A stretch of DNA of 35,679 bases. It comes from Chrysophaeum taylorii. Taxonomy: Eukaryota > Sar > Pelagophyceae > Pelagomonadales > Pelagomonadaceae. Location of the stretch: positions 1 to 35,679 of the forward strand of contig JAQMWT010000371.1 in the NCBI GenBank assembly GCA_029834535.1. Reading direction: 5' to 3'. The position numbers and the translations under genes were made by a program. Under the pieces are notes generated by a model. The model did not search any database. It saw nothing but the letters and a program-made list of their open reading frames with translations, and had not been told where the DNA came from. This document shows, piece after piece, positions 9,011 through 35,679 of the stretch. The stretch's first letter is position 1. Each line of letters starts with the position of its first letter.

Positions 9011-9032
9011 TAAATTGGACGCTGGTGGTCGT

Positions 9033-13733: not shown

Positions 13734-14044
13734 TGTGGCGGTAACCCTTACACCGCCATCCTTACCCCTAGTTCTATTGAGCTCTCTACCCCACTTCCCG
13801 TTTACTGGACTCTACTTCAACCCCTGACGTGCGTATTTGTAACGTCACCAGGCGTTTTCTCCTTTCAAATCGACTAATCTCAACCATAAATCATTTCACG
13901 AGTCTTCGGACTGAAGCTCGTGGGCAGTTTGAAGGTTGATCGACAGGAAGGAAGCGCTCCTCAACCCACTCGGCACCCTCGAGACGTCGAGGGCACAGTC
14001 GAAGCAGGGTAAGAAGTCAAGGCGCATAATCCTTTCCTGCCGCA
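13734..14044 (+). repeat. 5' LTR of element 1
   Basis: 311 bp, starting TGTGGCGGTAACCC and ending CCTGCCGCA (TG...CA). It aligns without gaps to 22518-22828 with about 13 mismatches counted by eye. Confidence 0.92.
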
Positions 14045-14534: not shown

Positions 14535-17500
14535 ATGCCGAAGCGACGCATCATACGAGATGAGGACGTCCCCCCCGACGCCGGATTAGAAGGGGCGGAA
14601 GAAAAGAGACCCCGCCGACGCAGCCACACGCGCCGGCGCCGGCCGCCGCACACGAGCCAGGCCGAGAAACCGAAAGACCGGCAGAAGCCGAAGAGAGAAA
14701 AGATGAAGAGTCGACGGGCGAGCAGCCAAGCGCCCCGACCACGACTCGAACCGAACCCGCCGATGAGCGCGCCGCCGAAAGCTCCCGAGCAGTTCGCGAG
14801 CTGCAGGAGATGGTATCGTTGCTCCAAGACCAGCTGCAGCAGCGCACCCGGCAAGATGAAGAAGTGCGAAGCCTGCTGCAAGAGCGGATCCGAATACAAG
14901 ACGAGGAGAGTCGAAAGCAAGCGCAAGAGCGCGAGGAGAAGCGCGATCGGTTTGCCCGAGAGATACAGAAGCAGGCGCGAGAGCGCGACGAAGAGCGCAC
15001 CTTGATCGCCCAAGAAATCGCGGCGCAGATCGAAGAGGCGGCGACGGCTCGACTCGAAACCGCGACCCGTGAGGAGAAGGAAGCCCTTCAGAACGAGCTC
15101 CGACGCGCTCGCGAGGACGCGGAGCACGCTCGCGAAGCTGCAGCGACCGAGATCCAAGATCTCCGGGAGGAAATGCGCTCGCTCAAGACGCGTCGAGAGC
15201 AGCGAGCGCGACCACCGCGACCCGAATCGCCTCGCGACTCGGACCACGACGAATCCGACTCCGAGCCGCCGAGCAGCGAACCGCCGGTCCGACGCGCGGA
15301 GCAGGCGAATCGCTCGCGAGCCCACGAGGAAGAGAAGGAACCCACGGAGGCCGACAAGATCGTCGCCGCGCTAGTGAGGGCCGCAACGGGCCAAGGGCCA
15401 TCCACCGCCCTGGCTTCCCGAAGATACGAGGACGCGGCCGCCCCGAGGCACCGACGCCTCAAGTTGGAGATGATCAAGTTGGACATCGAGGGCAAAGACC
15501 AGCGGCAGTTCGATCACGAGGCCGCCCTCATCGTCGGAGAGTTGTCGAAGGACCACTATTCCATCAGCTCGCTTTCGTTTGGCCTCGCGGACGACGTACG
15601 CCAGGCCGTGCTACCGACGTTGGAGGAAGGGCGAATGGCGGCCGAGGCACTGTGTACTTCGTTCGGCCACCCCGAGTCGTTCTATCTGCAATTCCACGCC
15701 GACAGCCAGACGCCGTACAAGGAGGAGATCCGACAGCTTCGCGACCTGAACCTCTCCCACGTCAAGCGTATCCTCCAGCAGCTCCGCCAAGCCTGCCGAC
15801 CCGCGCCTCGACCGGAGGAAGCCTTCCACAAGGTCCGGAACATCACGCAAGCCACCACGCCGAAGAAGGAGGGCGAATCTTGGGTCCTGACCTACCTCAA
15901 GTCGCTGCAGAAGGAGGCTACGGCCTATACAGCGCTGACGGGCACGTCGATGGATAGCATCGAGATGATTCACCAAATGATCGCCGGACTGGCATCGACG
16001 AAGCTGCAGCAAGAAATTCATATGGCGCGATGCGATCAGCCTAATCAGTACAACACCTTCGCTGAGGTGCAAAGCCTGATCCTCCGGCACGAGATCCAGT
16101 TCAACGCGTGGCAGAAGGCGCACCCCGGCAAGACCACCAACCCGCCGCCGCGCGACCCGCGCGACCGCAAGAAACCCGGCGCATACGCGACGCAACAGGA
16201 AGAGCCAGAGGTAGACGAGGACCCGAGGCCCAGTATGCGAAACAAGGACGCCTGGATGCAGAAGATGTGCGACCGCGGAAACTACAAGATCGACCATACG
16301 CGAAATGCCGATGGCTCCCTCCGATGCCCTCGCCCGAACGCGTATAAGCAAGCGATGAAAGCGCGACGACGGCAGGGACAAGAACCCATCCCTTACGGAG
16401 CCTGGAAGAGAGAACAGAAAGCAGCACGAGCCAACGGCGACCGACGACCGCCCGCGAATGCGAACGCCACCGCCTCACCGGGTGCTGGCGCCGTGCAGGT
16501 CAACCAGGTCGAAGCGATCGTCGAGCGCATGCTCGCAGCGCGAAACTCCTCGAGCTCGAGTACGCAATCCTCGATGGATTACGCGGGGTCTTTCTTTGGG
16601 CCTCAATCGAGGGACGGAGCAGCCGGATGCTCCATCACCGACGCCACGCCCCTCGGGTCGGCCAGCAGCACCGACGGAGAGTTTTTTGGAGCACTGCGGC
16701 CGTTCTCCGTGCACCCGGTGACACCACCGAGCGAACCGCCGCCGAAGCCGGGCGTGATGACCGCCCCGGCCGACTCGACGTTCGCCTCCCCGACTGCTCT
16801 CGACGTGGTCCCTGAGGACGAGCTAGACAAAACGCAAGCAGAGACCGCTATCGCACAGGCAAAGCTCGCCTTGCTAGGAGCCCCGCTCCGGAACGAAGAG
16901 AACGCCGGGCTCCCCGAGATCGACGTAGACCCCGAGCCGGTGGTCGACCCTCGATCACTCACCGCCCAGGCGCCTGATGACGGTCGGCCTGGTCAAGAGG
17001 AGAACGCGCTATCGTCTCTGGCTAAGCCAGGACGCCGAAACATCGAGGACATCCAGCGGGGACCGCACGAGTCGGACGCAACACCCTCGGACGTCAATGA
17101 CGACGCCGAAGACTCGAATTCGCGCGATCAGGAGGAAGATGTGGCCAGTCGCATCAGCGGCGCAACCGCAGAAGTCCCGCACGACTCGGACGCCGACGGC
17201 CCCGACCTCATCAAGAACACGTCCGACGGTGATGACGACGCCGACTCGGGAACGGAAGCGACCAATGAGCACCCGTCTGACTCCGACAGCGATGATGACA
17301 GCGACGACGTTTCCGACCCCGACGCTAACCGAACGGGATCACCGGAGGCAAATCCGCACGCCGTCAATTACGAACTCACCGCCCTCATCGATGATGACAC
17401 CGATTCGGACGGCGGCAGTTCGGACGAACGGGAAAGTCAACCCGGGGAATTGTTCCCTGCCCTATTCAGTCATCCGCGCGGACCCGCAACCGCCACAGCA

Positions 17501-18211
17501 ATAACAGATGCCCTTCTCCAAGCATTCGCGGACCCGCACCGACAAAACCCCACGGATGCGGACGGCGACGCGTCCGACAGAAACGACCATGACGACGACG
17601 GCAACACGCCCGAGAACGATATCAACCCTGATTCAACGTCGAGGGCGACGCCGCACTCTCCCCAAGGGGGTACCCGCCGCGGACCCGGCCGCGATATCGG
17701 CAGCGGAAACAGCGAGTCGCCACCAGTCGAGGAACCCGCCCAGGAACCGAACACGCCGGAACCGGAAGGATCGGAACAAACAGCCGAAACCGACAGGGGA
17801 CCCCCGCGCGAAGCTCGGGAAGAGAGAAGCCTCGAGGAAGTTCACGGATCGAAAGCGTCCCGCACGCGGTTAAGAAGCGCCAGATTAAGACCTCCGCGCC
17901 GAGGGTCGAGGAGGGGACGAGAGTCAAGCGGCTCTGGAACAAGAAGAGTCCCGAGCGAACCGACCCCCCGGCACGAAACCGAACTAAGACCCCAGACGGT
18001 GGCAGAGCCCTCCCTCTCCAAAACGAAGAGAAGGCAATCGACAAGGAGCCCGAGCCACCCGAAGAACGAAAAGAGCCTCGGAAAGACGAGGAACGAAGAT
18101 TTCCCGACTTTCCGGTTCGAGAGCGCGAAGAAAGAGGCCATCGGTTGCAGCGGAGAATCCAAGAGCTACCCGCCGATCCGCGAGCGAGCCGACAGAGCTG
18201 GTGGTCGATAG
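14535..18211 (+). CDS. gag: Gag polyprotein of LTR element 1
   Basis: The main frame is open from about 14563 to 18211, with its first ATG at 14810. A further ATG at 14535 opens a Lys/Arg-rich frame that would join by a -1 shift before 14810, as also seems to occur in element 3. Counting from 14810, residues 1-135 form a strongly charged coiled coil and about 218-440 a capsid-like helical domain containing GLASTKLQQEI. A nucleic-acid-binding Cys/His motif follows, C487-x8-H496-x9-C506, lacking the usual second Cys. The last 500 residues are very acidic and probably disordered. The protein (over 1100 residues) is much longer than most Ty3/gypsy Gags. The end of this frame (about 17850-18211) reads poorly, and the better protein sequence there lies in the protease frame. 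Confidence 0.75.
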
Positions 18212-19089
18212 CCCACCGATTCTTCGCGGGACGCGCGCACGTATCGATGCCGATGGCAGGGACGGAGGACGAAGCCATGCGCATGCACTCCTCTTTCGCC
18301 CCCATCAACGCCGAAACGATCGGCAGAGACCTGCGCGTCCTTAACTGCTGGGAAGCCGGTAGCCTGACGTTCATGCCCATCCACGTGTTCAATAAGCCGG
18401 GCGACTCATCGTATGCCACGGTGATCGGTGTGGACGGAATGGCCGACGTCACCTACGTCTGTCGCGACCCCGCCCGCCTAATGCGAAGGCGAGGGATGTT
18501 GATGGACAGCGGCAAGCTGCCTTTCGAGCGAACGCTCTTCGGATCGGGAAAGAATACGACCTCGACTTCAGAGTGGATCGCCCTGCGAGTATCCGTTTCG
18601 GACGAAATGGCCGTACCGGTAGTCGCAATCATAGCAGACACCAACAAACAATTTCTGCTGGGAGCCCGCGACATTCGAGCCTTGGGCGCGGTCGTGGATT
18701 ATCCCCGAGACCGAATTTCTTTCTTGCGAACCCAAACAGTCTTCCAGATGATGAAGCTCCTGTACGCTAGGGAGATCGTTCGGTCACCCGCCATCCTCTA
18801 TCGGGCAGCGCACGAAACACACCCCGTCGTAGCGCCAATTTGCGGTTTCCGAGGGCAAGCGCTGGCGCAGAGTCGGAGTCGAGGTGGCAAGAGAGCTCTG
18901 CCACCCCTGCTCACGGAAGAGGATCTACTCTCGCCGCCTCCTCAGCGAGCGTTGGCCGCCATCACCTTAGCCGAGGACCCATCTATGCCGAGCAACGACA
19001 CGAAAAGTCCGCGCCCGAGATCCGAGCGTTCGCGACCGGCTCCCAGCGCATCGACCCCGGTCGAACCCACAACATCCCGATCAAGCTGA
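18145..19089 (+). CDS. Retropepsin-like protease segment of element 1
   Basis: This frame lies -1 relative to Gag, and good protein sequence in it already begins near 17850. It carries a retropepsin-like core with ATVIGVDGMADVTYV (active-site Asp codon 18433-18435), a FGSGKNTT-type flap region and LLGARDIRALGAVVDY, the usual C-terminal hydrophobic-LLG signature. The active site is D-G-M instead of D-T/S-G. The homologous segment of element 3 has the same D-G-M-A-D, so this is a family trait. It should process the polyprotein if active. The last 60 codons overlap the next frame. Confidence 0.7.
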   Translation: MQRRIQELPADPRASRQSWWSIAHRFFAGRAHVSMPMAGTEDEAMRMHSSFAPINAETIGRDLRVLNCWEAGSLTFMPIHVFNKPGDSSYATVIGVDGMADVTYVCRDPARLMRRRGMLMDSGKLPFERTLFGSGKNTTSTSEWIALRVSVSDEMAVPVVAIIADTNKQFLLGARDIRALGAVVDYPRDRISFLRTQTVFQMMKLLYAREIVRSPAILYRAAHETHPVVAPICGFRGQALAQSRSRGGKRALPPLLTEEDLLSPPPQRALAAITLAEDPSMPSNDTKSPRPRSERSRPAPSASTPVEPTTSRSS

Positions 19090-20780
19090 GCCAAGCGCTG
19101 AAGCCCGGAGAAGCCTTCGTCGCCACCGCGCCAAGCGTGGAGCACCGCGTCGTCGCCGGAACCTGCTCGACACATGACCGCTCCGACCCAACCGCGGCCG
19201 CGGTGGCCATGTCGTCGATGGACGACACGCCGATGTCGATCATCCCAGGTCAAGAGCTCGCACGGGGGGAAATCGTCAACTGCCAAGAAGAAGTTCAGGT
19301 GACAACCCCATTGCCAAGCGCCGACCCGGGAAACTCACACGAAAGCGAGCACGAGGGCACGGCCTCCTTCACGGTCTCGGTCACCAGTTATCCAACTCCA
19401 GACCCCGGAGAACCAGACGGCCAAGCCTTTCGAACGTCTTCCATCGAGCCGCGCCTGCAAGCCCCGCAGGCGCAGCCGCAAGAACCGCCGAAGTCCCGGA
19501 CCGCCGACCAAGCGATCATCGACAAACACCAGGCGCTCTCCTGGATCCCGGAGAACGTAACGCCCGTCGTGATGTTCTTCGGCGGGATTGAAGGGGGCAC
19601 GCAGGGTATCTACCGGAGCAATGAGTGGTTCCGAACCGCGTACAAGGTCGTGCTCGTCATCGATGCATCCGACACCGCCAAAGAAGTCCACGAGAGAAAC
19701 TTTCCAGGGGTACCTGTCGTCCGGCACACCCTCGGCGGTCGGTACGACAGGGTCCTTTCTCTGGTCAAAGGTTACCTGCATGAAAGCCTATGGCCCACGG
19801 CACTTTTCGTAGGTACACCCCCATGCGTAGACTCCGACTTGTGCAACCTTACGGCCCGCGACGCCGGGAAAGGAGTCTCCGCGACCAATTGGACCATCAA
19901 GCTCTTCCAGCTTTCCGGAGTCGGACGATGGATCATCGAGCAGGAACCTTCAATCCGCTCGAAAATCACGTTGCGGCAAGGTTTCATCACCGTCGTCGAC
20001 CTATGGACGACGACGCCGGACCTCATGAGTACCCGTCGGCGCATGATCATCACGAGCTGGCCTCTTCAGCTCATCCGACGTCCCAAAACGTGCGGCACTA
20101 TTCAAGATACCTTCGCCGCCAAACTCGGACTCGACCCTGCGCAGCCTCTCATCCAGCGCAACAACTTTGGATGCACGCGAGAGGCCACGGCACCGATATA
20201 CACCATCACGCGGAACGGGGTGCGAACAGGACCCACGCCTTCGGACACCAAAGCGCTCAGACTAGAGATGCTCGCGGAGGCTCTCACAACGCCGAGCGAT
20301 CTCGCATGGGGTAACCTCACAGTCACGGACCGAATGAAGCATCTAGCGGCCGCGATACCCCCGTCTTCCATGGCGTACATAGTCCTCGACGCCCACAGCG
20401 CGCTGCCGCCCACGCTCCGCAACATCGAAATCGCGCGCCCGAACGTAGTCGGACCCACCGACGAACCCTCCGAAACATACATCAGCGAGCGCGCCCCCTC
20501 AAACCGCACCCGAGCCCCGGAGCGCCCTTGCGAACGTTTCGACTCGCGTACTTCACAGGGTGCCGAACCGCGACCTCCAGGACAAAGCGAAATGGCAACC
20601 GCCGGACCTCCCTTTGACCCCTCCGAAGCCCGCTGCATCAGGGACGATGCACTCATCTTCCCAAGAGGGTACCCGCGCGAGCAAAAACGACGCAACCTCG
20701 AAAGGCGAACCAAGGGACGAAAAACCAACCAAGAAACCAACTGGCGACAAGACCAAAGAGCCCGTCCGGTTCAAGTATGA
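18840..20780 (+). CDS. C5-cytosine methyltransferase-like domain of element 1 (between protease and RT)
   Basis: Open for 646 codons, with meaningful sequence from about 19000. The first part (19060-19290) is a beta-rich spacer of the kind that follows protease in Ty3/gypsy polyproteins, ending IIPGQELARGEIV. From about 19540 the class I methyltransferase order appears: motif I FFGGIEGG (19576-19599) followed by VVLVIDAS and NFPGVPVV; motif IV TPPC with the candidate nucleophile Cys at 19824-19826; motif VI position IIEQEPS (19935-19950), Gln replacing the Asn of ENV; motif VIII STRRRM (about 20031); a recognition-like region with TITRNGVRTGP (about 20200); and motif X position AAAIPPSSM (about 20349). 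Element 3 keeps the same series. It would methylate cytosine in DNA if active. The Gln variant could alter or abolish that. Confidence 0.72.
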   Translation: MRFPRASAGAESESRWQESSATPAHGRGSTLAASSASVGRHHLSRGPIYAEQRHEKSAPEIRAFATGSQRIDPGRTHNIPIKLSQALKPGEAFVATAPSVEHRVVAGTCSTHDRSDPTAAAVAMSSMDDTPMSIIPGQELARGEIVNCQEEVQVTTPLPSADPGNSHESEHEGTASFTVSVTSYPTPDPGEPDGQAFRTSSIEPRLQAPQAQPQEPPKSRTADQAIIDKHQALSWIPENVTPVVMFFGGIEGGTQGIYRSNEWFRTAYKVVLVIDASDTAKEVHERNFPGVPVVRHTLGGRYDRVLSLVKGYLHESLWPTALFVGTPPCVDSDLCNLTARDAGKGVSATNWTIKLFQLSGVGRWIIEQEPSIRSKITLRQGFITVVDLWTTTPDLMSTRRRMIITSWPLQLIRRPKTCGTIQDTFAAKLGLDPAQPLIQRNNFGCTREATAPIYTITRNGVRTGPTPSDTKALRLEMLAEALTTPSDLAWGNLTVTDRMKHLAAAIPPSSMAYIVLDAHSALPPTLRNIEIARPNVVGPTDEPSETYISERAPSNRTRAPERPCERFDSRTSQGAEPRPPGQSEMATAGPPFDPSEARCIRDDALIFPRGYPREQKRRNLERRTKGRKTNQETNWRQDQRARPVQV

Positions 20781-22302
20781 GGAACGGTTTGACGTACCAT
20801 GGAAAAACGCACCACGGGACGAAGACGGCGCGCCGCTACCGCAACAGCCCAACCATCTGAAAGAGAACGAGGCCATAATCGACAAGAACCCCACAAAAGA
20901 AGAAGTGGACAAGGTAGTCGACGAGCTAGGCATCCCGAAAAACTCACACTTGGACGAGGATGCCAAACTCATGTTGGCGCACTGCGTCCGATATTCTTGG
21001 GCCTCCTTCGATCCCATTATGATGACCGTGGACCCTCGACCGGTGTCCCTCCGATTCAAAGACGCGAACCCAAAGCCCATCGAGACGTCACCGTACCGCC
21101 TCGCTCCAGCCAAGATCGAATATCTTCGCAAGCAGATTTCCGAATGGCGCCGAGACGGAGTCGTAAGACCCGCCAACTCCCCTCGGGAGTTCCCGATCTT
21201 CATGCTTCCGAAGAAAGGGGCAGAGCTCGGGACATCTAACGCTCTCCGCGCGGCCGTCGACTTACGTCCGCTCAACGATCAGTTGGTTGCAGACAGAGGG
21301 CCGAACCAGCCGCAAGAGGACACCATAGAGTTCCGGGCCGGCCGAAAGCACAGGACGCCGAGACCATACCACGCCCAAGCGAACCCCGCGGAGCAAGTCA
21401 ATCGACTCCTCAAGGCGATCCTCCGGGCCCGCCGCCTCAAGAGTCGCAGCATCAACGACTGGCCGGCCCTCGCCCGGTACGTGTCGTTTTGCTACAACCG
21501 AAAGTTCATACCCGGCACGCAAATCTCGCCATTCATGTTGCGCCTGAACCGGAAGCCGATGTTGTCCACGGACTTCACCTTGTTGGTTCGGCCTGACCCC
21601 GTTTTGCCGCGACCACGAGCCGACGCGTTATTGAAAGTCAAGCAGAGCTTCCAGTATTACTCGAAAGTAGTCGCCGAAGCACAGGATCATGCCAAGATGA
21701 CGCAGAAACTCGCTTACGACGCCAAGCACGCGGATGTCGAATACAATGTCAATTCGCACGTATTACTGTACATTCCGCAGTCCCAAAACAAGTTGCGACC
21801 GGAGTGGCACGGCCCCTTTCTCGTCACCGAGCGCCTCTCACCCGCCTCGTACAAGATCCGATCGGTTTACGGAGCCGCCGATGAGCGAATCGTATCGGTC
21901 CAGCAGATCACCCCAGTGTCGATGCCTCCCACCCTCGATGCCACGATCCGTCGTCCGAGTCCCGGGTTCCGCGACGAGTACGAGCGCGGCAAGTTCGTCA
22001 TCTTCCGAATCCCGTCGGCCCGAGACCCCGATTGGCGCAAGAAGCTCTACGTCGCCGAGGTTTTCGAGGATTATGATGACGTTCAAGACCGAGTCGCCCT
22101 CCATTTTTACTCCTACCTGGGCCCGCGCGACGACCCATCGGATTTCGACCCGACCTCACCGCTTAAAGGTCGCACGCTGAGCCCGGAATTCAAGACGGCA
22201 CTCGGTCGCAGCTTCACCCGCACCGAGAAATTAACACCTCAGTGCACCCCTTGCGTGACCGACTTCGCCCCGGACGAGATCGACGTCCTGGTTCCCCGGT
22301 AA
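20560..22302 (+). CDS. pol: RT start fused to integrase end (internally deleted Pol of element 1)
   Basis: An open frame of 580 codons. The first 130 residues are a hydrophilic linker with VPWKNAPRDEDG, which matches element 3. The RT thumb/fingers entry follows: SPYRLAPAKIEYLRKQI, GVVRPANSPREFPIFMLPKK and AVDLRPLND (21090-21280). RT then stops abruptly and the frame runs into ADRGPNQ (the second integrase Asp), NPAEQVNR (integrase Glu), RYVSFCYNRKFIPGTQISP, and the C-terminal HGPFLVTERLSPASYKI fold. A terminal module GKFVIFR...YVAEVFEDYD...LGPRDDP ends the protein (21980-22180). The RT catalytic YxDD, RNase H and the first integrase Asp are absent. Confidence 0.85.
   Translation: MPNRDLQDKAKWQPPDLPLTPPKPAASGTMHSSSQEGTRASKNDATSKGEPRDEKPTKKPTGDKTKEPVRFKYEERFDVPWKNAPRDEDGAPLPQQPNHLKENEAIIDKNPTKEEVDKVVDELGIPKNSHLDEDAKLMLAHCVRYSWASFDPIMMTVDPRPVSLRFKDANPKPIETSPYRLAPAKIEYLRKQISEWRRDGVVRPANSPREFPIFMLPKKGAELGTSNALRAAVDLRPLNDQLVADRGPNQPQEDTIEFRAGRKHRTPRPYHAQANPAEQVNRLLKAILRARRLKSRSINDWPALARYVSFCYNRKFIPGTQISPFMLRLNRKPMLSTDFTLLVRPDPVLPRPRADALLKVKQSFQYYSKVVAEAQDHAKMTQKLAYDAKHADVEYNVNSHVLLYIPQSQNKLRPEWHGPFLVTERLSPASYKIRSVYGAADERIVSVQQITPVSMPPTLDATIRRPSPGFRDEYERGKFVIFRIPSARDPDWRKKLYVAEVFEDYDDVQDRVALHFYSYLGPRDDPSDFDPTSPLKGRTLSPEFKTALGRSFTRTEKLTPQCTPCVTDFAPDEIDVLVPR
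21280..21300 (+). other. Deletion joint between RT and integrase
   Basis: Reading frame passes from RPLNDQLV (RT) to ADRGPNQ (integrase) with no stop or frame change. Element 2 shows what normally follows RT: RNase H and a full integrase. The missing segment removes most of RT, all of RNase H and the integrase N-terminal half. Confidence 0.8.
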
Positions 22303-22502
22303 AAGCTCCAGGGTAAATCAGTTCCTCCTCCGATCGTCCAGCGAGTCAAAGATATTCTCGCGCATAGCGCGCGCCAAGAACAAGAACAACTCCAAGCTCA
22401 ACAACGCGCTCATCAGACGCGCACTCAAGTCCCGTCCACCGACGGTCCGCGCCGAAACTCTCGTCAGTCGCACCACCGCCGTCGCTGAGGACAGCTCCTA
22501 TC
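22303..22502 (+). other. Non-coding 3' region of element 1
   Basis: About 200 bp between the Pol stop and the purine tract. I see no gene or clear signal in it. Confidence 0.5.
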
Positions 22503-22517: not shown

Positions 22518-22828
22518 TGTGGCGGTAACCCTTACACCGCCATCCTTACCCCTAGTTCTATCGAGTTCTCTACCCCACTTCCCGTTTACTGGACTCTACT
22601 TCAACCCCTGACGTACGTATTTGTAACGCCACCAGGCGTTTACTCCTTTCAAATCGACTAATCTCAACCATAAATCATTTCACGAGTCTTCGGATTGAAG
22701 CTCGTGGGCAGTATGAAGGTTGATCGACAGGACGGAAGCGCTCCTCAACCCGCTCGGCACCCTCGAGACGTCGAGTGCACAGTCGAAGCAGGGTAAGAAG
22801 TCGGCGCGCATAATCCTTTCCTGCCGCA
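22518..22828 (+). repeat. 3' LTR of element 1
   Basis: 311 bp, TGTGGCGGTAACCC to CTGCCGCA, followed by the target duplication GCCTC (22829-22833). Confidence 0.92.
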
Positions 22829-25240: not shown

Positions 25241-25579
25241 TCACCGAAGAAAAGGCGAAGCAAGCTGTGCCAGGTACATCGGTGGGGATATCTTGGAAAT
25301 CAGAAAAGCTTCATTGATCGGTTCCCCGTCTTCGTCTTTCTCGATCAACTTGTCGATAGGGTTGCGCGACAGACAATCCGGGATACGCATGCCAGGGGAA
25401 TTTCCATACTTGTATCCGAGCTCCCGGTCGAACGCAGCAAGCCGCATAGCCCATCGCGCTAACTGTCCAGTGGCGCATCCTCTTGCTTCACACGCACAAT
25501 TCAACACGTTGTTCCCGAGTCCATACGCCGGATTCCCGAACACATCATACGTATGGGGAGAGGCACCTTGACCAGCCAT
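25241..25579 (-). CDS. pol: RNase H C-terminal fragment (element 2)
   Basis: 112 codons on the minus strand. GQLARWAMRLAAFDRELGYK followed by GNSPGMRIPDCLSRNP matches the conserved end of Ty3/gypsy RNase H (A-R-W ... Y-K-x-G-x ... A-D-x-L-S-R-x-P). The frame is open upstream to about 25655, but that part may belong to the neighbouring element. The catalytic N-terminal part of RNase H is missing. Confidence 0.7.
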   Translation of the reverse strand: MAGQGASPHTYDVFGNPAYGLGNNVLNCACEARGCATGQLARWAMRLAAFDRELGYKYGNSPGMRIPDCLSRNPIDKLIEKDEDGEPINEAFLISKISPPMYLAQLASPFLR

Positions 25580-26188
25580 TTCATCGGTGTCAAACCGCTG
25601 TACTTGCAGGCCGCATGTCTCTCCCCAAAGGATATCAAAGAGTCAACTGGTTACGCATTATACCTTGTATTTCTGGTCGTCCCGCAATTCCGCAAAGGTC
25701 TACAGGTTATCGCGACATCTCAGCTCAAAGCTCTGAATGTACAAGCAACAGACCCTCCATTGCCACACGATCCATACCTGCATGAACTAATGAGCACGTC
25801 GACAGCTGATCCCCACGATTACAAGACGCTCCTAGGAAAAACCGCGATAGTTCTCGCCAATCGCCAAACCAATGGCCTGTTGTCCCTAACACAGTTGAAA
25901 TTACTGTTCTCTATATATGTTATCAGCACATGGGACACCGAGACTCCTGTCTTGTCTCGATCCTGCCGTCTCATCCGAAACAAACCTTCCGCGCTGTGGT
26001 TAGTTTTCACACCGGAACATGCCTGCCTGTCACTCAAGGATGAACTCGCACACATCACGCAGCATGTCGCAAAGACACGCTCGCAATCTCACATGCTAGA
26101 TTTTGCTAAGCTACAGCATCACTCCATCTTCTTATCGGGCCTCATTCGCCTCCCGCGTACTGTCGTCCAATGTGCATTAACTACCTGA
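25553..26188 (+). CDS. Unrecognised ORF upstream of the methyltransferase
   Basis: About 200 codons in the same frame as the methyltransferase, separated from it by a single TGA (26186-26188). The first codons up to about 25600 may belong to element 2. The composition looks like real coding sequence (for example YALYLVFLVVPQFRKG, then LSLTQLKLLFSIYV), but I recognise no domain. It could be the N-terminal extension of the methyltransferase polyprotein. Confidence 0.4.
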   Translation: MGRGTLTSHFIGVKPLYLQAACLSPKDIKESTGYALYLVFLVVPQFRKGLQVIATSQLKALNVQATDPPLPHDPYLHELMSTSTADPHDYKTLLGKTAIVLANRQTNGLLSLTQLKLLFSIYVISTWDTETPVLSRSCRLIRNKPSALWLVFTPEHACLSLKDELAHITQHVAKTRSQSHMLDFAKLQHHSIFLSGLIRLPRTVVQCALTT

Positions 26189-26200
26189 GCGGATCTATTT

Positions 26201-27000
26201 GTGCAAGCACAACCCCCTCCGCTAAAAACAGCTATTATTGCAGGTGGACTTCACCAAGAAGGCTCTATTTCTTTTCGCAAACGCTTCGACCGTCGTATTA
26301 CTGTCGTGGTCACCTGTGAAATTCACCCCATTATGCGCGCTCGCGCGCAACAACTCTTCCCACACGCTCAGCATTATGCAGATCTCAGAAAGCTCAATGC
26401 CGCTCTGCAGGCCGGCAAAATTCGACTACCCCATTTCGACTTAGCGGCTTTCACACTGCCATGTCAACATTTGAGTGTCATGAAAGAATATGACGGCAAC
26501 GCCACTCCGGTGACCGCCGACGTTTTTGTCACAGAACAAATCCGCTTTGTTCGCTGCACGCTCCCGACCTACGCCGCTGTCGAGAACGTTCCTCCCAAAC
26601 CCCGAACTCATCACGAGTACACCCAACTCGCCAAATGCTATCAGCGCTTAGGCTACTTCCGACACTCCGGTGTCTACAATGCCTCCGCTTTTGGTGACGT
26701 CATCAGCAAGACCCGCTATCTCGCTGTCTATGCCCGGCACCCGCTCACCGAGTACAACCTCGAGAAAAACGCTTCTCCTTGGTTAACATCTCCTCCGAGC
26801 ATGGTCCCCCTTCTGGACCCCAGCAACACTATCCCCGACGATCTCTGGATCGCCAACCCCACCCTTCGTGGCACCGTGCCCCGCTCCACCTTGACCTACT
26901 ACCAACACAAGGCCATTTTCCCTACGCGCCCGCCAACGCCTCTAAACTGCCGATTTCCGAAAATGCCCGCATCTGCCAAATGCTCGCACGCTCCACCTAG
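26201..27000 (+). pseudogene. C5-cytosine methyltransferase, motifs I-VIII (copia-like element)
   Basis: It reads AIIAGGLHQEGSISF (motif I) and VVTCEIHPIMR (acidic end of strand 2). TLPCQHLS (motif IV) holds the PCQ nucleophile Cys, near 26461. AAVENVPP (motif VI) has an intact ENV, near 26578. NASAFGDVISKTRYLAVYA (motif VIII) lies near 26680-26735. This is the classical order of DNA cytosine methyltransferases. The frame then slips near 26930: the continuation PYAPANASKLPIS is in the next phase and meets a TAG at 26998-27000. So this copy cannot make the full enzyme. It differs from the EQEPS type in elements 1 and 3. Confidence 0.75.
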
Positions 27001-28090
27001 CCCTTCACGGATCTCGGTCTAGATGCCGACGGCACCCCCTACGCCACCATGGAGTACATTTCCCACCTACTGGTTTTCACATTGCTGCACTATAATTTGT
27101 CGCAACATCCCACTCTCGCCGCTTGGAACACCATCCGCTGTTTTTATGCCTCAGAGTCTCAATGTGCTTACCATTTGGATGGAGCCATCACCGGCACCGC
27201 CGCTACTGCCGTCGCATGTGGCTACTTCCAACGCGCCTCCCTCACCCTACATTCCAGGCCCCCTCGGATATTGGACTGTTCCCATCAACCCGCAGTCTTC
27301 TCCCCAACGCACGCCTTTTCCCTGGATGTTCCCAAGGGCACCGCCTTTCTGGTCGTCGCCTACACCACCTCCTTGGCCGCCGCTCACAGCTGCTCGCGCC
27401 CGTCCACTTGGGTCCACTACATGAATCGTTCGCATCCTGGCTTTGCCGCGATCGACTCACGAGGGCGAATTACTCTCGATGACCGCAAGGGACTCATAAT
27501 GTCCAAAGTACGTCCCACTTACGCGGACTATGTCGGCCACATCGGAGACACGCTTCAGAAAAGCACCGAATGTTACTCGGTCACTGGCTCGTACCCAACC
27601 AACACGAGCTACTCCAACGCCTTGCTGCTGATCCCCCCAGACCACATCCGCTATGTGACCCTCAACGAAATCGGAAAGTTTGGACACCACTCGGACCCGG
27701 AACTGCTCCGTCTGTTCCAACAGCACCCGCCATACTTCGCGTTTAAGGCACTGGCCAACGCCGTCCCGCACCACATGCTGCAGGCAGCAAAGTACAGCGC
27801 TGTACTCGCACTCCACGAATCGCACCACCACATGAACTTTCACATCGAATGGGCAACAATGCGCAATGGCATCCCCAGCCCCAGAGACATCAACTTGGTT
27901 GCAGAATTCTTCCTGAGCATCTCCAGCCGTCTCTTAGCAGAAGAGGACCTCAACCTCTCCACCCTCTTCAATGCCGTAGCAGATGCCCATTATGATGCGA
28001 TCTGCAAACCAAGCAAATCGAAAAACCTCTTGCTAAAGTCCGAGTCGACAAGCGACCCAGCCCCCCCAGCGCTTCGACTGCCGCTCTGCC
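27001..28090 (+). pseudogene. C5-cytosine methyltransferase, recognition region and motifs IX-X
   Basis: The frame is open from 27001 (ATG 27049) to 28209, with DNMT content to about 27830. After a long target-recognition-like region (27050-27560), IRYVTLNEIGKF (about 27649) resembles motif IX and ALANAVPHHMLQAA (about 27750) is motif X (G/A-N-A-V-P). A linker of about 250 bp leads to the integrase, which is in the -1 frame. The piece belongs with the motif I-VIII part upstream across a stop and a frameshift. Confidence 0.72.
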
Positions 28091-28856
28091 CCCCTTGCAC
28101 TCGCCCGGCACCATTCAGCACGCCAAAAGACTGCTTTTGGTCACTCGCTGGCACCGCATACATCACCAGCAACCAGAGATTCTTCGCCGCACGATTGCCG
28201 CCAATGTAACGAATATCCGTCCAGGTGATGATCGGTATCTGCAAGACTGCAGTGAATGCAAGCGCTGCCAATCGCACGTAGGCTTCAGTCACAAGAACAA
28301 TTCCTGGTCACAGGATGAACTGGCCTATGCTCCTGGCCAACACCTCCACATGGATGTCTCATACCCGAGCATCAGCAAATGCTATGGTTGCTTTCGCTAC
28401 ATCATGCATCTTGTGTGTATTATCTCAGCACACAAGTGGGTCTATTTCCTGCGGAAACTAGACGCACAGGACGTTCTGGCTGGCATCCTCTACGTGGTAA
28501 ATGTGATTAAGGTCGAATTCGATGTAAATGTGAAAATCATATCGTCTGATGCATTCTCAACTTTCCGCTCCGAAGCATTCCACCCGCTCAAGGTGCAACT
28601 CGGCATCCAGTTTCAAATCATTGGTCGCCACCTCCACCAGCGGAACTTTGTGGAAAACATCATCAAGGAAAACACCCGAGGCACTGTAGTTCGCCTCCTC
28701 AATCTGCGCAGTGTCCGCATCGAAGGAAAGTCCATTGCCGCCGAGTATTATCACCCATTTGCTCTGCTGCACAAGATCCAAGCCGACAATCAGCGCTCTC
28801 ATGGACGGCCCTCGCGCACAAACATGACTTGCACCGTCCCCCGGCGCATCATGTAG
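28085..28856 (+). CDS. Copia-like integrase, C-terminally short
   Basis: About 250 codons. A zinc-binding start WHRIHHQQPE ... CSECKRCQSH (H-x3-H, C-x2-C) resembles the GAG-pre-integrase region of Ty1/copia. The core shows HLHMDVSYP (first Asp), WVYFLRKLDAQDV, KIISSDAFSTF (second Asp) and RNFVENIIKENTRG (Glu). The spacing and the WVYFL segment point to copia rather than gypsy. The ORF stops at 28856 soon after the core and no RT follows, so the Pol is incomplete. The frame is -1 relative to the methyltransferase part. Confidence 0.7.
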
Positions 28857-30444: not shown

Positions 30445-30870
30445 ATGACGGCCCCGTGGTTTCGGGACGCCCAGGAACGTCTGCGGCGAGTCATCACCCC
30501 AGTGATGGAGTCATCCCTCCGAAGACGGCTAGATGTCGGGACGGGTGGCGAACGAGTGGAGATACCAGTGGAGAGTGCGGCGGATACGGCTGTCCGACCA
30601 GAAGTGCGCACTCCAGAAAGTGAAGAAGTGGGGACCATGACAGCCCCAGAACCTATGCCTGCAACGGTAGTCGGGGGCGAGCCAACGCCTATGCCCGTGC
30701 ACGTACGAGAAGACGAGACGATCCGTACGGAACGACTACGGTCCGACCCAAGAACTCCAGCTGCAATCCGGGAGCCGGTGACTCGAGCACCGCCGGCCCC
30801 ACCTTACTCTGCGATTGCTGGAGAAGAAAAGATAGAGGGGGATCCCGCGCTTATGCGCACCCTCCTCGAA
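30445..30870 (+). CDS. gag: Gag N-terminal segment of element 3
   Basis: Starts MTAPWFRDAQERLRRVITPV at ATG 30445 and reads as a Pro/Glu-rich N-terminal region to about 30870. There the coiled coil continues in the -1 frame (KVEEYRSKIHYLEG). No canonical slippery heptamer is evident (the local sequence is CTCGAAAAGTTG), so this may be a mutation or an unusual programmed shift. Confidence 0.5.
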
Positions 30871-33446
30871 AAGTTGAAGAATATCGCTCTAAGATCCACT
30901 ATCTCGAAGGGACGATGGAATACGAGCGAGCAGAGTCTCAACGCCAATACCGAGACGCTGAGCTTCAGCGTCGGACAGTTCAGCATGAACGAGCCGAGAA
31001 TGAACGGCTTCGACGAGAAATCGAAGACACGAGACGAGCTCGAGAAGAATATCCACCATCTCTCGATACTACCCTCGTCGAACAACATCGTCGAGAGGCC
31101 GAGTTTCAGCGGCACGAGGCCGAGAAGCTGCGGCGTGAGCTTAAAGAGGCCACACGAGTCCGAAACAAGCGACCACCATCACCTGACGTTGATCGCGCCA
31201 GACCGGAACTAGCGGACGACGCCGCGGCGACTCGTGCAGACGACCCCCCGCCTCGAAAGCATCCCGAACCAATACGGCGGAGGCCCTCTGCACCTGACTT
31301 CGATCCTTCTGGCGACGATGATGAGTTCGATGATACCATCAGTATCGATAGAGGTCCGACGGGGATGCACAGGTTGAACTTCCCGACACTCCAGGGCCCT
31401 ATTGTCAAGGCGCGTGACGAAGTACGGACGTGGTGGAACCAACTGATGCGGATCATCGAGCTAAGGCTCGACCGTCCTTCATGCGCCATGAACATGATCG
31501 GTGGCGAATATCAACTCGCTCCCATGACTGTTTATAACAAGTGGGAAGACGAGCACAAGCCACTATGGAAAGGGTATTTACGCGGACGTGTTTCGAAGGC
31601 GGAAATCCGTAAGCACGACGAGGAGTACTTGGCCAAAATCGAGGAAGCACTCCTATTGCCCTGCCCTCCTCGAGCTACTACAGAGCAACTGGAGTACGAG
31701 TGGTACACGATGACGCAAGGCAACCGTCCGCTCTCCAAGTACGTCAGCAAGTGGGTCCAAAAATTTGGACTATGGCGAGCTGCTTCTAAGAACCCGGTGG
31801 AGCCCGAAGCTTTTCGGATGCACTTTCTCCGAGGGTTATCGTCTGAAAAGCTCCGACACGACATTCACCTTGCGCGGATCTCGGCCCCGGACCAAACGCT
31901 AGACCAGACGTTCCAACTTGCCTTGCAATTGGACGCGATGCCAGAGGTGGGGACGTCCAGCGACAAGCATGAAGATCCAAAAAAGACCAAAGTCCCAAAA
32001 GACAAGCCCCACCGTACGCGTAAGGAATGGTATCAGCAGCAGCAGCTAGCAGGTTATGTCACCAGCTCTGACGCGTCAGGTCGGCTGCCGGAGAACCTCG
32101 ACTCTGAGTTACACTATGCGTTGATGACGTGCTTGAAATGTGGGAAGCATATTTATTACGGGCACGATGGTGGAGTGTGTCCTAAGTCTGGAAATTCTGA
32201 TCGGAAAGCTCGCGCTGCCCGTACGTTGAAGGCTGCAGGCTTCCCACCGACGGCAGAAGGACAGGCCCAATGTCGACAAACGGTCACGGCTAATCAAGCT
32301 GCCGTGACGCGGCGCGTTCAAGCACCATTTACGCCACCCCCACAGGTCGTCTACACTGCTGCGCAGGGCACAGGTGCCGGTCCCCAACAGGTAATCGCAG
32401 CCGCTCCGCAGCAGATGGTTCAGCAACCAGTGGTGCAGCAGCAGAGTGCATCGCGCACGCTGAGATCGGAGGACGTTGCGCAGGCACTAAACACCCTGTC
32501 GTTGCTACGACAAGCTACCCAGTCGACACAGCAGCAGGCCAACCCCAGCCAGTGCAGTGCCGGCGCCGCCTCCCAGTGGCTCGATGTGCTTGATGAAGAT
32601 CAGGGCGGCCCTAGGCGATTCAATGGATGCACGGTGCAGAATGCGGCGCTGATTGACGGCAATGTGATCAGCGGAGACGACGAGGATGAGAGCCGTGGTG
32701 ATGTAACACCAGAAGAGCACTCCTTTTGTGATGAACCCATGGAACCGCCCTCCCTTTTGGTGATCACCGAGGACGCATGGACGGCAGAAGAGAGTCGGAG
32801 TGCTGAGGTGCGCAAAGTCGCGTCTATCCTCTCCAGTCAGGACGGAAGGGCGATGTCGAAAGACGAGGACCCAAGCTGGTTTACTGGTCGAGACCAATCG
32901 ATGGCCATCACTGTGGAGCCGTCATCAGAGGAACTTGCCACTGGCTCCGCTGCATGCCCGAGCATTAGCTCTGATTTCGATGAGTTCTGCCCGCAGACAG
33001 CGATGAATACAGCTAGTCATCCCGATCATCGTGAGAACAAAGCAGTGACATACGACGGGACGAAGTTGACATGTTTGACGTATATCCCTGTCGCCGTTGT
33101 GTCTCAGGATGGTGCATCTTATTCGGTCCTTGCAGCTGGGCTGGATGGTATGGCTGACTCGCCATACATCGATCACGTGCTTTACAACAAGCTCAGACGT
33201 GAAAATAAGATCATTTATCGCCAGGCGCTGCCCTCTACTCGCACTCTTAGCGGATCAGGTGGTTCAGGAGCGGCTATTCGCGAATGGATTATCTTCTTAC
33301 GCGTTTCTATGACGCCTGGAACTTCCACTCTGCTGATGTTTTTCGTGGGGCAGACGAATGGGCAGCTACTACTAGGAGCGCGAGAATTACGACTTTGGGT
33401 TCTATCATGGATTACGCTTCCGAGTAGGCCATTTTCCTCGCTCTGA
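30870..33446 (+). CDS. gag-pro: Gag and protease of element 3
   Basis: An open frame; residue numbers count from ATG 30915. Residues 1-90 are a charged coiled coil. About 150-345 is a retrotransposon Gag capsid domain (YTMTQGNRPLSKYVSKWVQ, HFLRGLSSEKLRHDI). C406-x2-C409-x7-H417-x4-C422 is a zinc-knuckle variant with longer spacing. About 490-540 is Gln-rich. The protease segment follows with VLAAGLDGMADSPYI (Asp744), a SGSGGSGAA flap and LLLGARELR. Gag and protease are in one frame here, unlike element 1. A frameshift just after LLLGARELR and an in-frame stop end the reading. Confidence 0.78.
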   Translation, partial: KVEEYRSKIHYLEGTMEYERAESQRQYRDAELQRRTVQHERAENERLRREIEDTRRAREEYPPSLDTTLVEQHRREAEFQRHEAEKLRRELKEATRVRNKRPPSPDVDRARPELADDAAATRADDPPPRKHPEPIRRRPSAPDFDPSGDDDEFDDTISIDRGPTGMHRLNFPTLQGPIVKARDEVRTWWNQLMRIIELRLDRPSCAMNMIGGEYQLAPMTVYNKWEDEHKPLWKGYLRGRVSKAEIRKHDEEYLAKIEEALLLPCPPRATTEQLEYEWYTMTQGNRPLSKYVSKWVQKFGLWRAASKNPVEPEAFRMHFLRGLSSEKLRHDIHLARISAPDQTLDQTFQLALQLDAMPEVGTSSDKHEDPKKTKVPKDKPHRTRKEWYQQQQLAGYVTSSDASGRLPENLDSELHYALMTCLKCGKHIYYGHDGGVCPKSGNSDRKARAARTLKAAGFPPTAEGQAQCRQTVTANQAAVTRRVQAPFTPPPQVVYTAAQGTGAGPQQVIAAAPQQMVQQPVVQQQSASRTLRSEDVAQALNTLSLLRQATQSTQQQANPSQCSAGAASQWLDVLDEDQGGPRRFNGCTVQNAALIDGNVISGDDEDESRGDVTPEEHSFCDEPMEPPSLLVITEDAWTAEESRSAEVRKVASILSSQDGRAMSKDEDPSWFTGRDQSMAITVEPSSEELATGSAACPSISSDFDEFCPQTAMNTASHPDHRENKAVTYDGTKLTCLTYIPVAVVSQDGASYSVLAAGLDGMADSPYIDHVLYNKLRRENKIIYRQALPSTRTLSGSGGSGAAIREWIIFLRVSMTPGTSTLLMFFVGQTNGQLLLGARELRLWVLSWITLPSRPFSSL

Positions 33447-33454
33447 AGTTACCA

Positions 33455-34063
33455 TTGGAGTTCGGAAAAGTAAGATCCCCGATGCGCTTCAGACCACCAG
33501 GGTGTTGTCCTCTTCAACGAAGCCTTCGATGCGACTCCAACAGTGGTGCCGATGTTCCCGACGGCCAAGCTCGCCATACACGAGGGAACCAGAAGCAGTG
33601 GCAGCCATTTGCTACTCCTTGGCGGTACGATAGCTTGCTTCGGTCCATCCAGGCTAGAGCCGAGCACCATCGCACTGACCCAGAGCATCCTCCGCTAGAC
33701 GCGCATGGTTGTGAGATTTCTGCGGGTACGGGCGGACAAAGTCAGGTTTCCCGTGAGGATCCCACCGTCGTCCCTCACTTCGCGTTTGTGACTAAGACCC
33801 ACTATCTCGCACCCGGCCATCCGTATGTGCTGGAGCTTGTCTGTGACGCGCCACTGATGAGAGGTCAGGCCTACCGCCCTTATCGCTCGCTCTACCCTGA
33901 TTTGCGTGTGATACCAAACTCTTTGTCGTCATATTGCTTCCACGAGCCGAACGAAGTTTACGTGGCTGTGGAGCATGTTGGCACAGGACCTATTGGACCG
34001 AACCCTGAGGTACCCATGATCGAGGGGAGAGAGCATACCACAGAAGGTTGCGTCAAAGTATAG
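33455..34063 (+). pseudogene. Protease-to-methyltransferase spacer of element 3
   Basis: An open frame whose second half reads FVTKTHYLAPGHPYVLEL ... NEVYVAVEHVGTGPIG ... PEVPMIEGRE. It has the same layout as the spacer of element 1 (RTHNIPIKLSQ ... IIPGQELARG). No enzyme motif. The N-terminal half is poorly supported because the protease frame was lost just upstream. Confidence 0.45.
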
Positions 34064-34203
34064 CTGGAGGCCGCTGAAGAGGATACAAGAGTCTGTTTTG
34101 CGACTGCTTCAGCTGACGAAGATGAGACGGAAGTCGAGGAGGAGGTCTTAGCTGTGAGACCCCCTCCTGAACCTCCTCCAGAAGAAGGAACAAAAAAAAT
34201 GTC

Positions 34204-35130
34204 GAAGGAAGAAGCCACGACTCAGGAGCTGATTGCTAGGCATGCTTCTTTGGTTTGGATTCCAATCACCTATATCAGCGTCGTCGTTTATTTCGCCGGC
34301 GCTGGTGGATCGAGTTTGGGGATCCAACGATGCAATGAGATCTATGGAACCTCTTTTCGCATTGTGTTGGCTTTGGGACTCATGTCCACAAGCGCGAGCT
34401 GTTTTCCAGCTCAACTTTCCTAAGATCCCGTACGTGCTTCATGCCCTGGGAAATCTCATCGTCGTACGTACGATGTGGTCTTGTCATACCTACATAAGGA
34501 TCATTGGAGACATTCGTACTTCCACGCCAGTCCTCCTTGTATTTATGGCTCGACCGCGAACCTGCACTACAGGGACGCGCGCAAGGGTGCTGCCATCACC
34601 TCGTGGGTTCTGCGTCATTTCCGCAATGCACCTCACGTGATTGGACGATGGACGTTGGAGCAGGAGCCATCCGTGATTCCTTTTATCCATCACAAGTTCT
34701 ACATTCCGCGTGTGATTGACTTTTACAGTATCACCCCGGAATTGCTGTGTTCGCGCACGCGCCTACTTGGCAGCAATGTGCGCTTCATTGCCACTACTGA
34801 CGCGAGTGCCACCCAATTTGCAGGACCGTTTCGGGCCAGCGTTAGGCTTTCCGAGTGGTCACCCTCTGATTGTGGTGAACAGTTTTTCATCTACGCGACC
34901 AGCCATCGGCCCCACTTTCACGGTGACGCGCAACAAGTTGCAGATGGGCCCTCACTTTTCCAATGTGCGACCACTGTCCGTGGAAATGCATCAGGAGATC
35001 ATGACCGTCCCCACGACGTGGAAATGGGGTAGCATTTCGCAATCAGCGGCTATGAAGATGCTGGGGAGCATGGTACCTCCTGCGACTATGATGCGCATCG
35101 CACTCGCAGTGCATAACTCATTCAATCACG
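34204..35130 (+). pseudogene. C5-methyltransferase-like domain of element 3, frameshifted
   Basis: The motifs follow the order of element 1: SVVVYFAGAGGSSLGI (motif I, 34280-34320); VFQLNFPKIPYVLHALG in another frame (about 34400); SPPCIYG with Cys at 34538-34540 (motif IV); RDARKGAAITSW; RWTLEQEPS (motif VI position, about 34648-34672); LCSRTRL (motif VIII, about 34748); TVTRNKLQMGP (about 34910); and MLGSMVPPATMM (motif X position, about 35059). Breaks lie near 34375, 34450 and 34905. The shared EQEPS and R-D-A-x-K-G show that the domain was inherited as part of the element. Confidence 0.72.
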
Positions 35131-35679
35131 TGATTCGCAATCAGGGTCAACTACGGAATATCACTACCGCGACGATGGCCAATCCCGATTACCGTCTTCT
35201 ACGGTTTTCATCTTTTGCTATCGACTCGCGTATTCCCACGCTCGACCCTAACACCCGATGTGTGTCATGGATCCATCAAGACGACTTCTACTCCAGCCAA
35301 ACTTCAAACGTCACCGCTGTTCCCACCGCCACCCCACCACCACCGTTCGTTGTATCGCCTGGGACGGCTCAATCTTTTTCAGGGGGCACCGTCGCCACTG
35401 CTGTGATGCAGAGCAACCAAGTCTCTACGACCGCTGAAGAGGACGGCACATTGAAGGAGCGACCAGCGTATTTCAAGACGTACGCAGTTCCGTGGGCGGA
35501 CGCGCCTAACGACGAACATGGTTATCCTGTACCAGTGGTGCCTCCTCATTTAGCTGATCAAGAGAGCATGCAAGTCATCCCTCCGACCGTCGCGCAGGTC
35601 GAAGAGGTGATGGCTGCGCTGGGCATTACAGACCATCCCGCTTTAAATGAGGATGACTGGATGATGCGATTTGCTTTCC
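34906..35679 (+). CDS. pol: End of methyltransferase, linker and start of RT polyprotein (element 3, partial)
   Basis: One frame is open from about 34906 to the end of the window. It carries the last methyltransferase motifs, then a Pro/Thr-rich linker (35300-35400). AVPWADAPNDEHGYPVPVV and LGITDHPALNEDDWM follow, matching the pre-RT region of element 1 (VPWKNAPRDEDG, LGIPKNSHLDED). RT itself would lie beyond 35679. Confidence 0.7.

What the first reader, a model, noticed from the sequence alone, without database searches (positions are those of the whole stretch)
18840..20780. A C5-methyltransferase-like domain between protease and RT of a Ty3/gypsy-like element
An open frame lying between the protease and RT segments carries, in order, motif I (FFGGIEGG), TPPC, EQEPS, STRRRM and a motif X-like IPPSSM. 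This position and motif set are not part of ordinary Ty3/gypsy Pol. Retrotransposon-borne cytosine methyltransferases are known from a few lineages (Klebsormidium gypsy-type and Symbiodinium copia-type elements, from memory). Self-methylation to modulate host silencing is one possible role, but that is inference.
Basis: partly seen in the sequence, partly recalled or inferred. Interest (0 to 1): 0.92.

Follow-up and report, generated by a model that had tools for sequence, protein, structure and literature searches.

The report
DNA methyltransferase inside algal LTR retrotransposons
An alga-like genome is full of jumping elements that carry a DNA-methylating-type enzyme next to their protease; such elements are known from only a few lineages, and they let one ask why selfish DNA would carry the kind of enzyme that hosts use to silence it.

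Summary
Window 19500-20444 encodes a divergent C5-cytosine-methyltransferase-like domain with motifs I, II, IV, VI, VIII and X in order, between the protease and RT parts of a Ty3/gypsy element with LTRs and a 5-bp target duplication (13734-22828). Pfam does not score this copy, but homologous families B (about 45% identical) and D include copies above the curated DNA_methylase cut-off. The same 70.8-Mb genome gives over 400 matches: families A, B, D (Ty3/gypsy) and C (Ty1/copia, domain also after the protease, no detectable similarity to A/B/D). The domain is under purifying selection. The window copy is frameshifted and belongs to a deletion subfamily that lost most of RT, RNase H and integrase but kept gag-PR-MTase, and that has recombined with full-domain relatives. 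Outside relatives found: an unnamed ENA protein and an Aureococcus anophagefferens protein. The host has a fucoxanthin/chlorophyll-type antenna gene, DNMT2 and a DNMT5-like gene. The gypsy copies show no clear CpG mutation footprint, which speaks against stable CpG self-methylation. Most likely mechanism (inferred): particle-borne methylation of the element's own cDNA or RNA. New variant of a known kind: DNMT-retrotransposons are published for Symbiodinium and Klebsormidium.

The parts
13734..14044 (+). 5' LTR of the family A Ty3/gypsy copy (TG...CA)
   Evidence: Direct repeat 13733-14045 / 22517-22829, 313 aligned bp, 95.8% identical; ends and flanks read
22518..22828 (+). 3' LTR; GCCTC flanks the element on both sides (5-bp target duplication)
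14564..18211 (+). gag-side open frame (1215 aa)
   Evidence: Open frame; no Pfam hit; placed as gag by alignment of the gag-PR-DNMT frame of L026 to family A relatives
18390..18770 (+). retropepsin-like protease segment (VIGVDGMAD at about 18421-18447)
   Evidence: Read by eye, conserved in families A, B and D; no Pfam hit
19500..20444 (+). C5-methyltransferase domain: motif I 19563-19610, II 19647-19670, IV 19809-19853 (Cys codon 19824-19826), VI 19926-19955, VIII 20019-20051, X 20343-20375
   Evidence: relatives match PF00145
20797..21346 (+). RT N-terminal remnant up to the deletion junction
   Evidence: tblastn and blastn against relatives
21347..21349 (+). junction of the internal deletion; L017 and L020 have about 2.0 kb more here (RT palm to integrase core)
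   Evidence: same junction in 6 of 9 family A loci
21350..22302 (+). integrase C-terminal part and a conserved C-terminal tail
   Evidence: Integrase_p58_C 19.1 bits, below its cut-off of 27; alignment to families A and B
25470..28854 (+). family C Ty1/copia copy, broken frames; methyltransferase frame 26189-27019
   Evidence: PF00145 2.2e-7, 31.1 bits; alignment to L031 at 81-88%; L031 carries PF00145, rve (below cut-off) and RVT_2
30624..35679 (+). family D Ty3/gypsy copy, broken frames, cut by the contig end; methyltransferase about 34223-35204
   Evidence: 32943-35679 is 97.9% identical to L041; L041 has PF00145 4.9e-8, 33.2 bits

Best explanation
Shown: an LTR retrotransposon of the Ty3/gypsy kind whose Pol carries a C5-cytosine-methyltransferase domain between protease and reverse transcriptase. 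The window holds a decayed, internally deleted copy of a family whose relatives are abundant and under purifying selection. Inferred: the domain is made as part of Gag-Pol, packaged in the particle and released by the protease; there it methylates cytosines of the element's own reverse-transcribed DNA (or of template RNA or hybrid). The mark would be transient, or not in CpG context, and would help the copy survive or enter chromatin between reverse transcription and integration. My odds: identity and architecture about 0.95; catalytic competence of intact relatives about 0.8; action on the element's own nucleic acid rather than elsewhere about 0.45. The figure below is for the whole statement.
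For: Domain order PF00145 - RVT_1 - RNase H - H2C2 - rve in one frame in L022 (PF00145 there 18.4 bits, below cut-off) and over two frames in L026; PF00145 above cut-off in L023 (25.3 bits) and L041 (33.2 bits); motif residues kept in 22 of 22 rows; dN/dS medians 0.23, 0.18 and 0.16 in families A, B, C, in the range of other Pol parts; P0001 and P0002 carry the domain in front of RT sequence; in the copia family the domain also follows the protease within pol (protease read by eye). CG methylation by two retrotransposon DIRS DNMTs expressed in yeast is published (PMC5890265).
Against: No enzyme assay. No confident structure model. No clear CpG depletion or CpG transition excess in the gypsy copies, so stable CpG methylation of inserted copies is unlikely. 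The published gypsy-borne domain gave no activity in yeast, called inconclusive by its authors. The window copy is broken.
Confidence: 0.6

Rival explanations
1. The domain is an RNA m5C methyltransferase that acts on the genomic RNA or a primer tRNA, in the manner of DNMT2.
For: The best sequence lead to a host enzyme is DNMT2 (profile E 4.8e-4, probability 32%), and the two best PDB rows for the A+B profile are DNMT2 chains (E 0.11 and 0.12). No clear CpG footprint on gypsy DNA. De Mendoza et al. raise RNA methylation for the LINE domain.
Against: The matches are weak and cover mainly motif I; with family D added the best PDB row is another cytosine methyltransferase (8yf3, E 0.041). No structural or biochemical test of the RNA preference.
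Confidence: 0.2
2. The enzyme acts in trans on the host genome or on other elements and changes the host methylome, rather than its own copy.
For: Over 400 matches in 70.8 Mb; deletion derivatives that lack most of RT to integrase keep the domain, which fits a product supplied in trans.
Against: Placement in Pol beside the protease points to the particle. Two host-gene stretches are CpG rich (o/e 1.30 and 1.47; only two were looked at). No methylome.
Confidence: 0.2
3. The domain is kept as a nucleic-acid- or SAM-binding part without catalysis.
For: Motif VI reads EQE rather than ENV, and motif I is degenerate in some copies (usual forms recalled).
Against: Motif IV Cys, motif VI Glu and motif VIII Arg are kept in 22 of 22 rows at down to about 30% identity.
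Confidence: 0.12
4. A chance insertion of a methyltransferase gene into one transposon copy, or an assembly artefact.
For: The window copy itself is broken.
Against: 102 family B matches, 87 of them without a stop inside; purifying selection; relatives in other sequence sources with the domain in front of RT sequence.
Confidence: 0.02

Closest known systems
KnitGypsy-Dnmt3 of Klebsormidium nitens (de Mendoza et al. 2018, PMC5890265; parts 1-4 of 7 of the text read)
   Same: C5-MTase inside the Pol frame of a Gypsy element, under purifying selection.
   Different: There the domain is Dnmt3-related and the repeats are arranged as in DIRS elements (figure legend). Here the window copy and L023 have plain LTRs with 5-bp duplications, and the domain found no named DNMT3 relative in three protein searches. 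The position of the published domain within Pol is in a figure that I could not see.
SymbioDIRS-Dnmt3 and SymbioLINE-Dnmt of Symbiodinium (PMC5890265)
   Same: High-copy retrotransposons with C5-MTase domains; two DIRS domains methylated CG in yeast.
   Different: LINE and DIRS elements, not LTR elements; SymbioLINE-Dnmt is CG depleted, whereas the gypsy copies here are not.
AURANDRAFT_67346 (P0002) of Aureococcus anophagefferens, and unnamed ENA protein P0001
   Same: Same domain at about 27-35% identity with RT sequence downstream.
   Different: P0002 is annotated as hypothetical, has only a weak RT match (15.9 bits) and no PF00145 hit; P0001 has RVT_1 and RNase H above cut-off but no PF00145 hit.
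Host DNMT2 (L037) and DNMT5-like gene (L038)
   Same: C5-MTases of the same genome; DNMT2 aligns to the A/B/D profile from motif I to VIII.
   Different: About 20% identity in that alignment; not shown to be the source. The DNMT5-like protein has a SNF2 domain.

Membership tests
C5-cytosine methyltransferases (PF00145) | Profile match above the curated cut-off | tested here: met
   Met by relatives, not by the window copy: L023 25.3 and L041 33.2 bits against 22; 5 of 10 rows of A1 match at E up to 1, all family B; window copy none; L022 18.4 bits, below cut-off
C5-cytosine methyltransferases (PF00145) | Ordered motifs with catalytic Cys, Glu and Arg | tested here: met
   22 of 22 rows
C5-cytosine methyltransferases (PF00145) | Rossmann-like SAM methyltransferase fold | tested here: inconclusive
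   pLDDT 37.1 and 38.9; no Foldseek match at E 0.001 or better; 20 of the 50 listed rows are DNMT3, DRM or DNMT2 entries
C5-cytosine methyltransferases (PF00145) | Methyl transfer to C5 of cytosine | not testable with these tools
   Needs an enzyme assay
Ty3/gypsy LTR retrotransposons | PR - RT - RNase H - INT order in Pol | tested here: met
   RVT_1, RT_RNaseH, Integrase_H2C2, rve in that order in L022 and L026; in the window copy the middle is deleted
Ty3/gypsy LTR retrotransposons | LTRs and short target duplication | tested here: met
   313-bp repeats with GCCTC flanks in the window; 337-bp repeats with GCACA flanks in L023
Ty1/copia with C5-MTase (family C, window 25470-28854) | Integrase before RVT_2, with PF00145 upstream | tested here: met
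   L031: PF00145 at 349-475, rve at 1016-1110 (17.2 bits, below its cut-off of 32.6), RVT_2 at 1686-1933; L033: PF00145 and RVT_2, no rve reported. Protease DGGAS by eye
DNMT3 (as in KnitGypsy-Dnmt3) | Grouping with named DNMT3 in a tree | not tested
   No named DNMT3 sequences at hand; no DNMT3 turned up in the protein searches, which have length limits

The most novel reading that the evidence does not exclude
In one algal lineage two apparently unrelated C5-MTases were captured independently by the two great LTR superfamilies, and both settled next to the protease as a particle-borne epigenetic module. Deletion derivatives that no longer encode a full polymerase or integrase keep gag-PR-MTase in frame and spread by borrowing those enzymes; the methyltransferase itself is then the shared good that lets such elements persist.
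Probability: 0.35. Interest if true: 0.88.

Novelty: new variant of a known kind. Interest (0 to 1): 0.76.

Why it matters
DNA methylation is a classic means of silencing transposons, so elements that carry the enzyme are a paradox, documented in what I read for dinoflagellates and a charophyte. A 71-Mb genome with over 400 matches, two LTR superfamilies, two seemingly unrelated enzymes and the same docking place turns a curiosity into a repeatable comparison, and it offers a contrast to test: many gypsy copies without a clear CpG footprint.

Tried and rejected
Pfam, NCBIfam and a protein search with the window domain alone gave no methylase hit; relatives were needed. Structure prediction failed twice, so the Foldseek list is weak support only. 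The pattern scans found no relatives in viral contigs for the A/B/D profile or family C, nor in genome contigs for A/B/D. A common origin of the gypsy and copia domains found no support in profile comparison, but the profiles are shallow. Host 18S, and a test of whether the host is Aureococcus anophagefferens, could not be run (service unreachable). Separate origins of the deletion copies are unlikely: same junction and one clade in the segment left of it; in the segment right of it they do not form one clade (C169, full-domain, groups with C114 at 0.888), which I read as exchange between copies. Evolution of each copy as one linked unit was rejected for the same reason.

Literature: the answered searches were made, in the held open-access library only. 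In their listings I saw no paper on these elements in a stramenopile and no clear report of a copia-borne C5-MTase. PMC12344493 (passages) speaks of DNMT3 in 'LTR Copia and DIRS' elements citing the 2018 paper, which describes Gypsy. PMC6338049 (passages) names Stramenopiles among hosts of DAM- or DCM-encoding Ty3/Gypsy and DIRS elements, without detail. Passages only were also seen of PMC9998398, PMC3145265, PMC12477816 and PMC12730594. Other listed papers were seen as listings. Subscription papers and Repbase were not searched.

Full report
WHAT WAS CHECKED. The open frame 18771-20780 exists and reads 669 aa. The part encoded by 19500-20444 carries FFGG (motif I region), VIDAS, TPPC, EQEPS, STRRRM and IPPSSM in that order. 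Motif names and their usual forms are recalled; their conservation is measured. In 22 rows (9 family A, 9 family B, 2 family D, P0001, P0002) the motif IV Cys, the first motif VI Glu, the motif II Asp and both motif VIII Arg are present in all 22; the motif X PP is complete in 20 of 22.

IS IT A METHYLTRANSFERASE. Pfam gives no methylase hit for the window copy. Relatives do better: PF00145 matches 5 of 10 rows of an A+B alignment (5 A, 5 B), best 3.9e-6; the first row, the window, is not among them, and family A's L002 had no NCBIfam hit either (that the five are the five family B rows is my reading, since the call names only the first row). L023 of family B scores 25.3 bits and L041 of family D 33.2 bits against a cut-off of 22; the best stretch of L041 covers profile positions 257-321 of 324, the motif X end. 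L022 of family B stays below the cut-off (18.4 bits), and P0001 and P0002 have no PF00145 hit. The window domain is 43-46% identical to five family B rows. A profile of D, A, B and P0001 aligns to the host's DNMT2 at E 4.8e-4 with a probability of only 32%, and weakly to the solved cytosine-specific methyltransferase 8yf3 at both ends (E 0.041). AlphaFold gave no confident model (pLDDT 37.1 alone; 38.9 with five rows). In Foldseek no match reached E 0.001; 20 of the 50 listed rows are DNMT3, DRM or DNMT2 entries.

THE ELEMENT. The window copy has direct repeats of 313 aligned bp at 95.8% identity. Read as TG...CA they bound 13734-22828 and are flanked by GCCTC on both sides. Family B copies show RVT_1, RNase H, Integrase_H2C2 and rve after the methylase, in one frame of 3005 aa (L022) or over two overlapping frames (L026). 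The window copy is not intact: against the frame of L018 it changes frame near 16.9, 17.9, 19.0 and 20.5 kb, while the methyltransferase stays in one frame.

A DELETION SUBFAMILY. In the window, L018, L019, L021, L006 and L007 (6 of 9 family A loci examined) the RT N-terminus is fused to the integrase C-terminus with the same junction; L017 and L020 have about 2 kb more at this place, and L003 does not show the junction. In L018 an open frame of 1885 aa runs through the junction. Left of the junction the deletion copies form one clade apart from C169, C95 and C451 (support 1.0). In the gag-PR and DNMT segments the window copy groups with full-domain C451 (0.997 and 0.985), and C169 sits with deletion copies. 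Right of the junction the deletion copies do not form one clade. So deleted and full-domain elements have exchanged sequence, as expected if their RNAs are packaged together (inference). Family B has a second, different deletion: L023 lacks about 2.16 kb against L022 and L026, keeps an open frame of 2393 aa, and has repeats 99.7% identical over 337 bp with GCACA on both sides. Both deletions keep gag-PR-MTase; with two cases this may be chance.

COPY NUMBER. The host assembly has 70.8 Mb in 697 contigs. With the window domain: 127 matches, 25 rows at 80% or more (24 places, one being split) and 102 at 44-47% (family B); 87 of these 102 and 15 of the 25 have no stop inside. With the family C domain: 146 matches. 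With a 124-aa family D piece: 153 matches, the list being cut; the last one listed is a family A copy. These are lower bounds, because only the best candidates are scored; on the other hand some contig pairs look like duplicates (C25/C521, C10/C297) and some copies are split over rows, so distinct loci are fewer than matches.

FAMILY C IS A TY1/COPIA ELEMENT. L031 gives PF00145 at residues 349-475 (1.1e-7), rve at 1016-1110 (below its cut-off) and RVT_2 at 1686-1933 (1.6e-38); L033 gives PF00145 and RVT_2. A protease-like DGGAS lies upstream (by eye). The gypsy and copia domains show no similarity in profile comparison; with such shallow profiles this is not proof of separate origin. Both nevertheless sit just after the protease.

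SELECTION. Nei-Gojobori dN/dS of the domain, over pairs with dS above 0.02: family A median 0.23 (9 copies, range 0.13-0.82, the high values between close pairs), family B 0.18 (9 copies), family C 0.16 (8 copies). Within family B, pooled ratios with L024 and L029 left out are DNMT 0.22 (6 copies), RT 0.32 (6), PR 0.46 (5), INT 0.15 (4) and gag 0.19 (one pair only). Between L026 and the more distant L024 the ratios are DNMT 0.16, RT 0.04, PR 0.25, gag 0.35, so the domain is constrained, though less than RT.

CPG FOOTPRINT. CpG observed/expected is 1.20-1.36 in the 14 loci L017-L030 with gypsy copies, 0.97-1.04 in six copia loci, and 1.30 and 1.47 in two host-gene stretches. The copia loci are thus lower than the host stretches and have TpG ratios of 1.10-1.18, so some CpG loss there is not excluded. 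C-to-T type transition rates at CpG and CHH are 0.0331 and 0.0306 in A, 0.0212 and 0.0196 in B, 0.0314 and 0.0297 in C, 0.0050 and 0.0032 in D (11 and 14 events): at most a slight excess. This counts against dense, stable CpG methylation of the gypsy copies, unlike the CG depletion reported for SymbioLINE-Dnmt (PMC5890265).

HOST AND SPREAD. The contig stretch with the host DNMT2 (1g55, E 3.9e-39) also holds, on the other strand, the start of a light-harvesting antenna protein of the fucoxanthin/chlorophyll a/c kind. The other clear host enzyme found by a six-frame search has PF00145 plus a SNF2 domain, as DNMT5 does; genes with many introns could have been missed. The host is probably an alga with a red-lineage complex plastid (inference); its name is not known to me. 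Three protein searches found P0001 (ENA, no name) and P0002 (Aureococcus anophagefferens, a pelagophyte) only.

MECHANISM. Shown: architecture, conservation, selection, abundance, exchange between copies. Inferred: packaging with Pol, release by the protease, and action on the element's own cDNA or RNA. The particle-borne model explains why two enzymes were placed in Pol beside the protease rather than in a frame of their own. The weak CpG footprint asks for a transient mark, another context or an RNA target. The 2018 paper found CG activity in yeast for two DIRS domains and none for its gypsy domain, which it called inconclusive.

NOVELTY. Retrotransposon-borne DNMTs are known (PMC5890265). 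New here, as far as the searches named under Tried and rejected show: the probably stramenopile-like host, plain-LTR gypsy families with a domain not close to a named DNMT, a copia-borne C5-MTase, and deletion derivatives that keep the domain.

Noticed in passing
window 3034-6129 (+): A 1031-aa open frame that by eye looks like a Helitron-type replication/helicase protein; not tested against any library.
   Followed up: no
window 6065-10906: Long near-identical repeats, e.g. 7140-8622 against 9418-10906 at 90%, of unknown kind.
   Followed up: no
window 12627-13733 and 22829-23196: The family A element seems to have landed in an open frame that by eye resembles a non-LTR reverse transcriptase; not tested.
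   Followed up: no
window 23586-24566 (-): An integrase-like open frame on the other strand, by eye related to the gypsy families here; whether its element carried a methyltransferase is unknown.
   Followed up: no
window 21950-22300; L022 and L026 after the integrase: A conserved C-terminal tail (GKFVIFRIP...VAEVFEDYDD) of unknown function in the gypsy families, kept in both kinds of deletion copy.
   Followed up: no
L029: gag-PR-DNMT is 92% identical to L026 while its RT-INT part is only 50-66% identical and has 5 stops in RT: a mosaic with a border just after the DNMT.
   Followed up: partly
L031 (family C), between motif VIII and an apparent motif X (ALANAVPHHM): A long stretch of roughly 300 residues, larger than a usual target-recognition region, with no Pfam match at E up to 0.1.
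   Followed up: no
window 18433-18447; families A, B and D: The protease active site reads DGMA (DGVA in L040) where DS/TGA is usual (usual form recalled).
   Followed up: no
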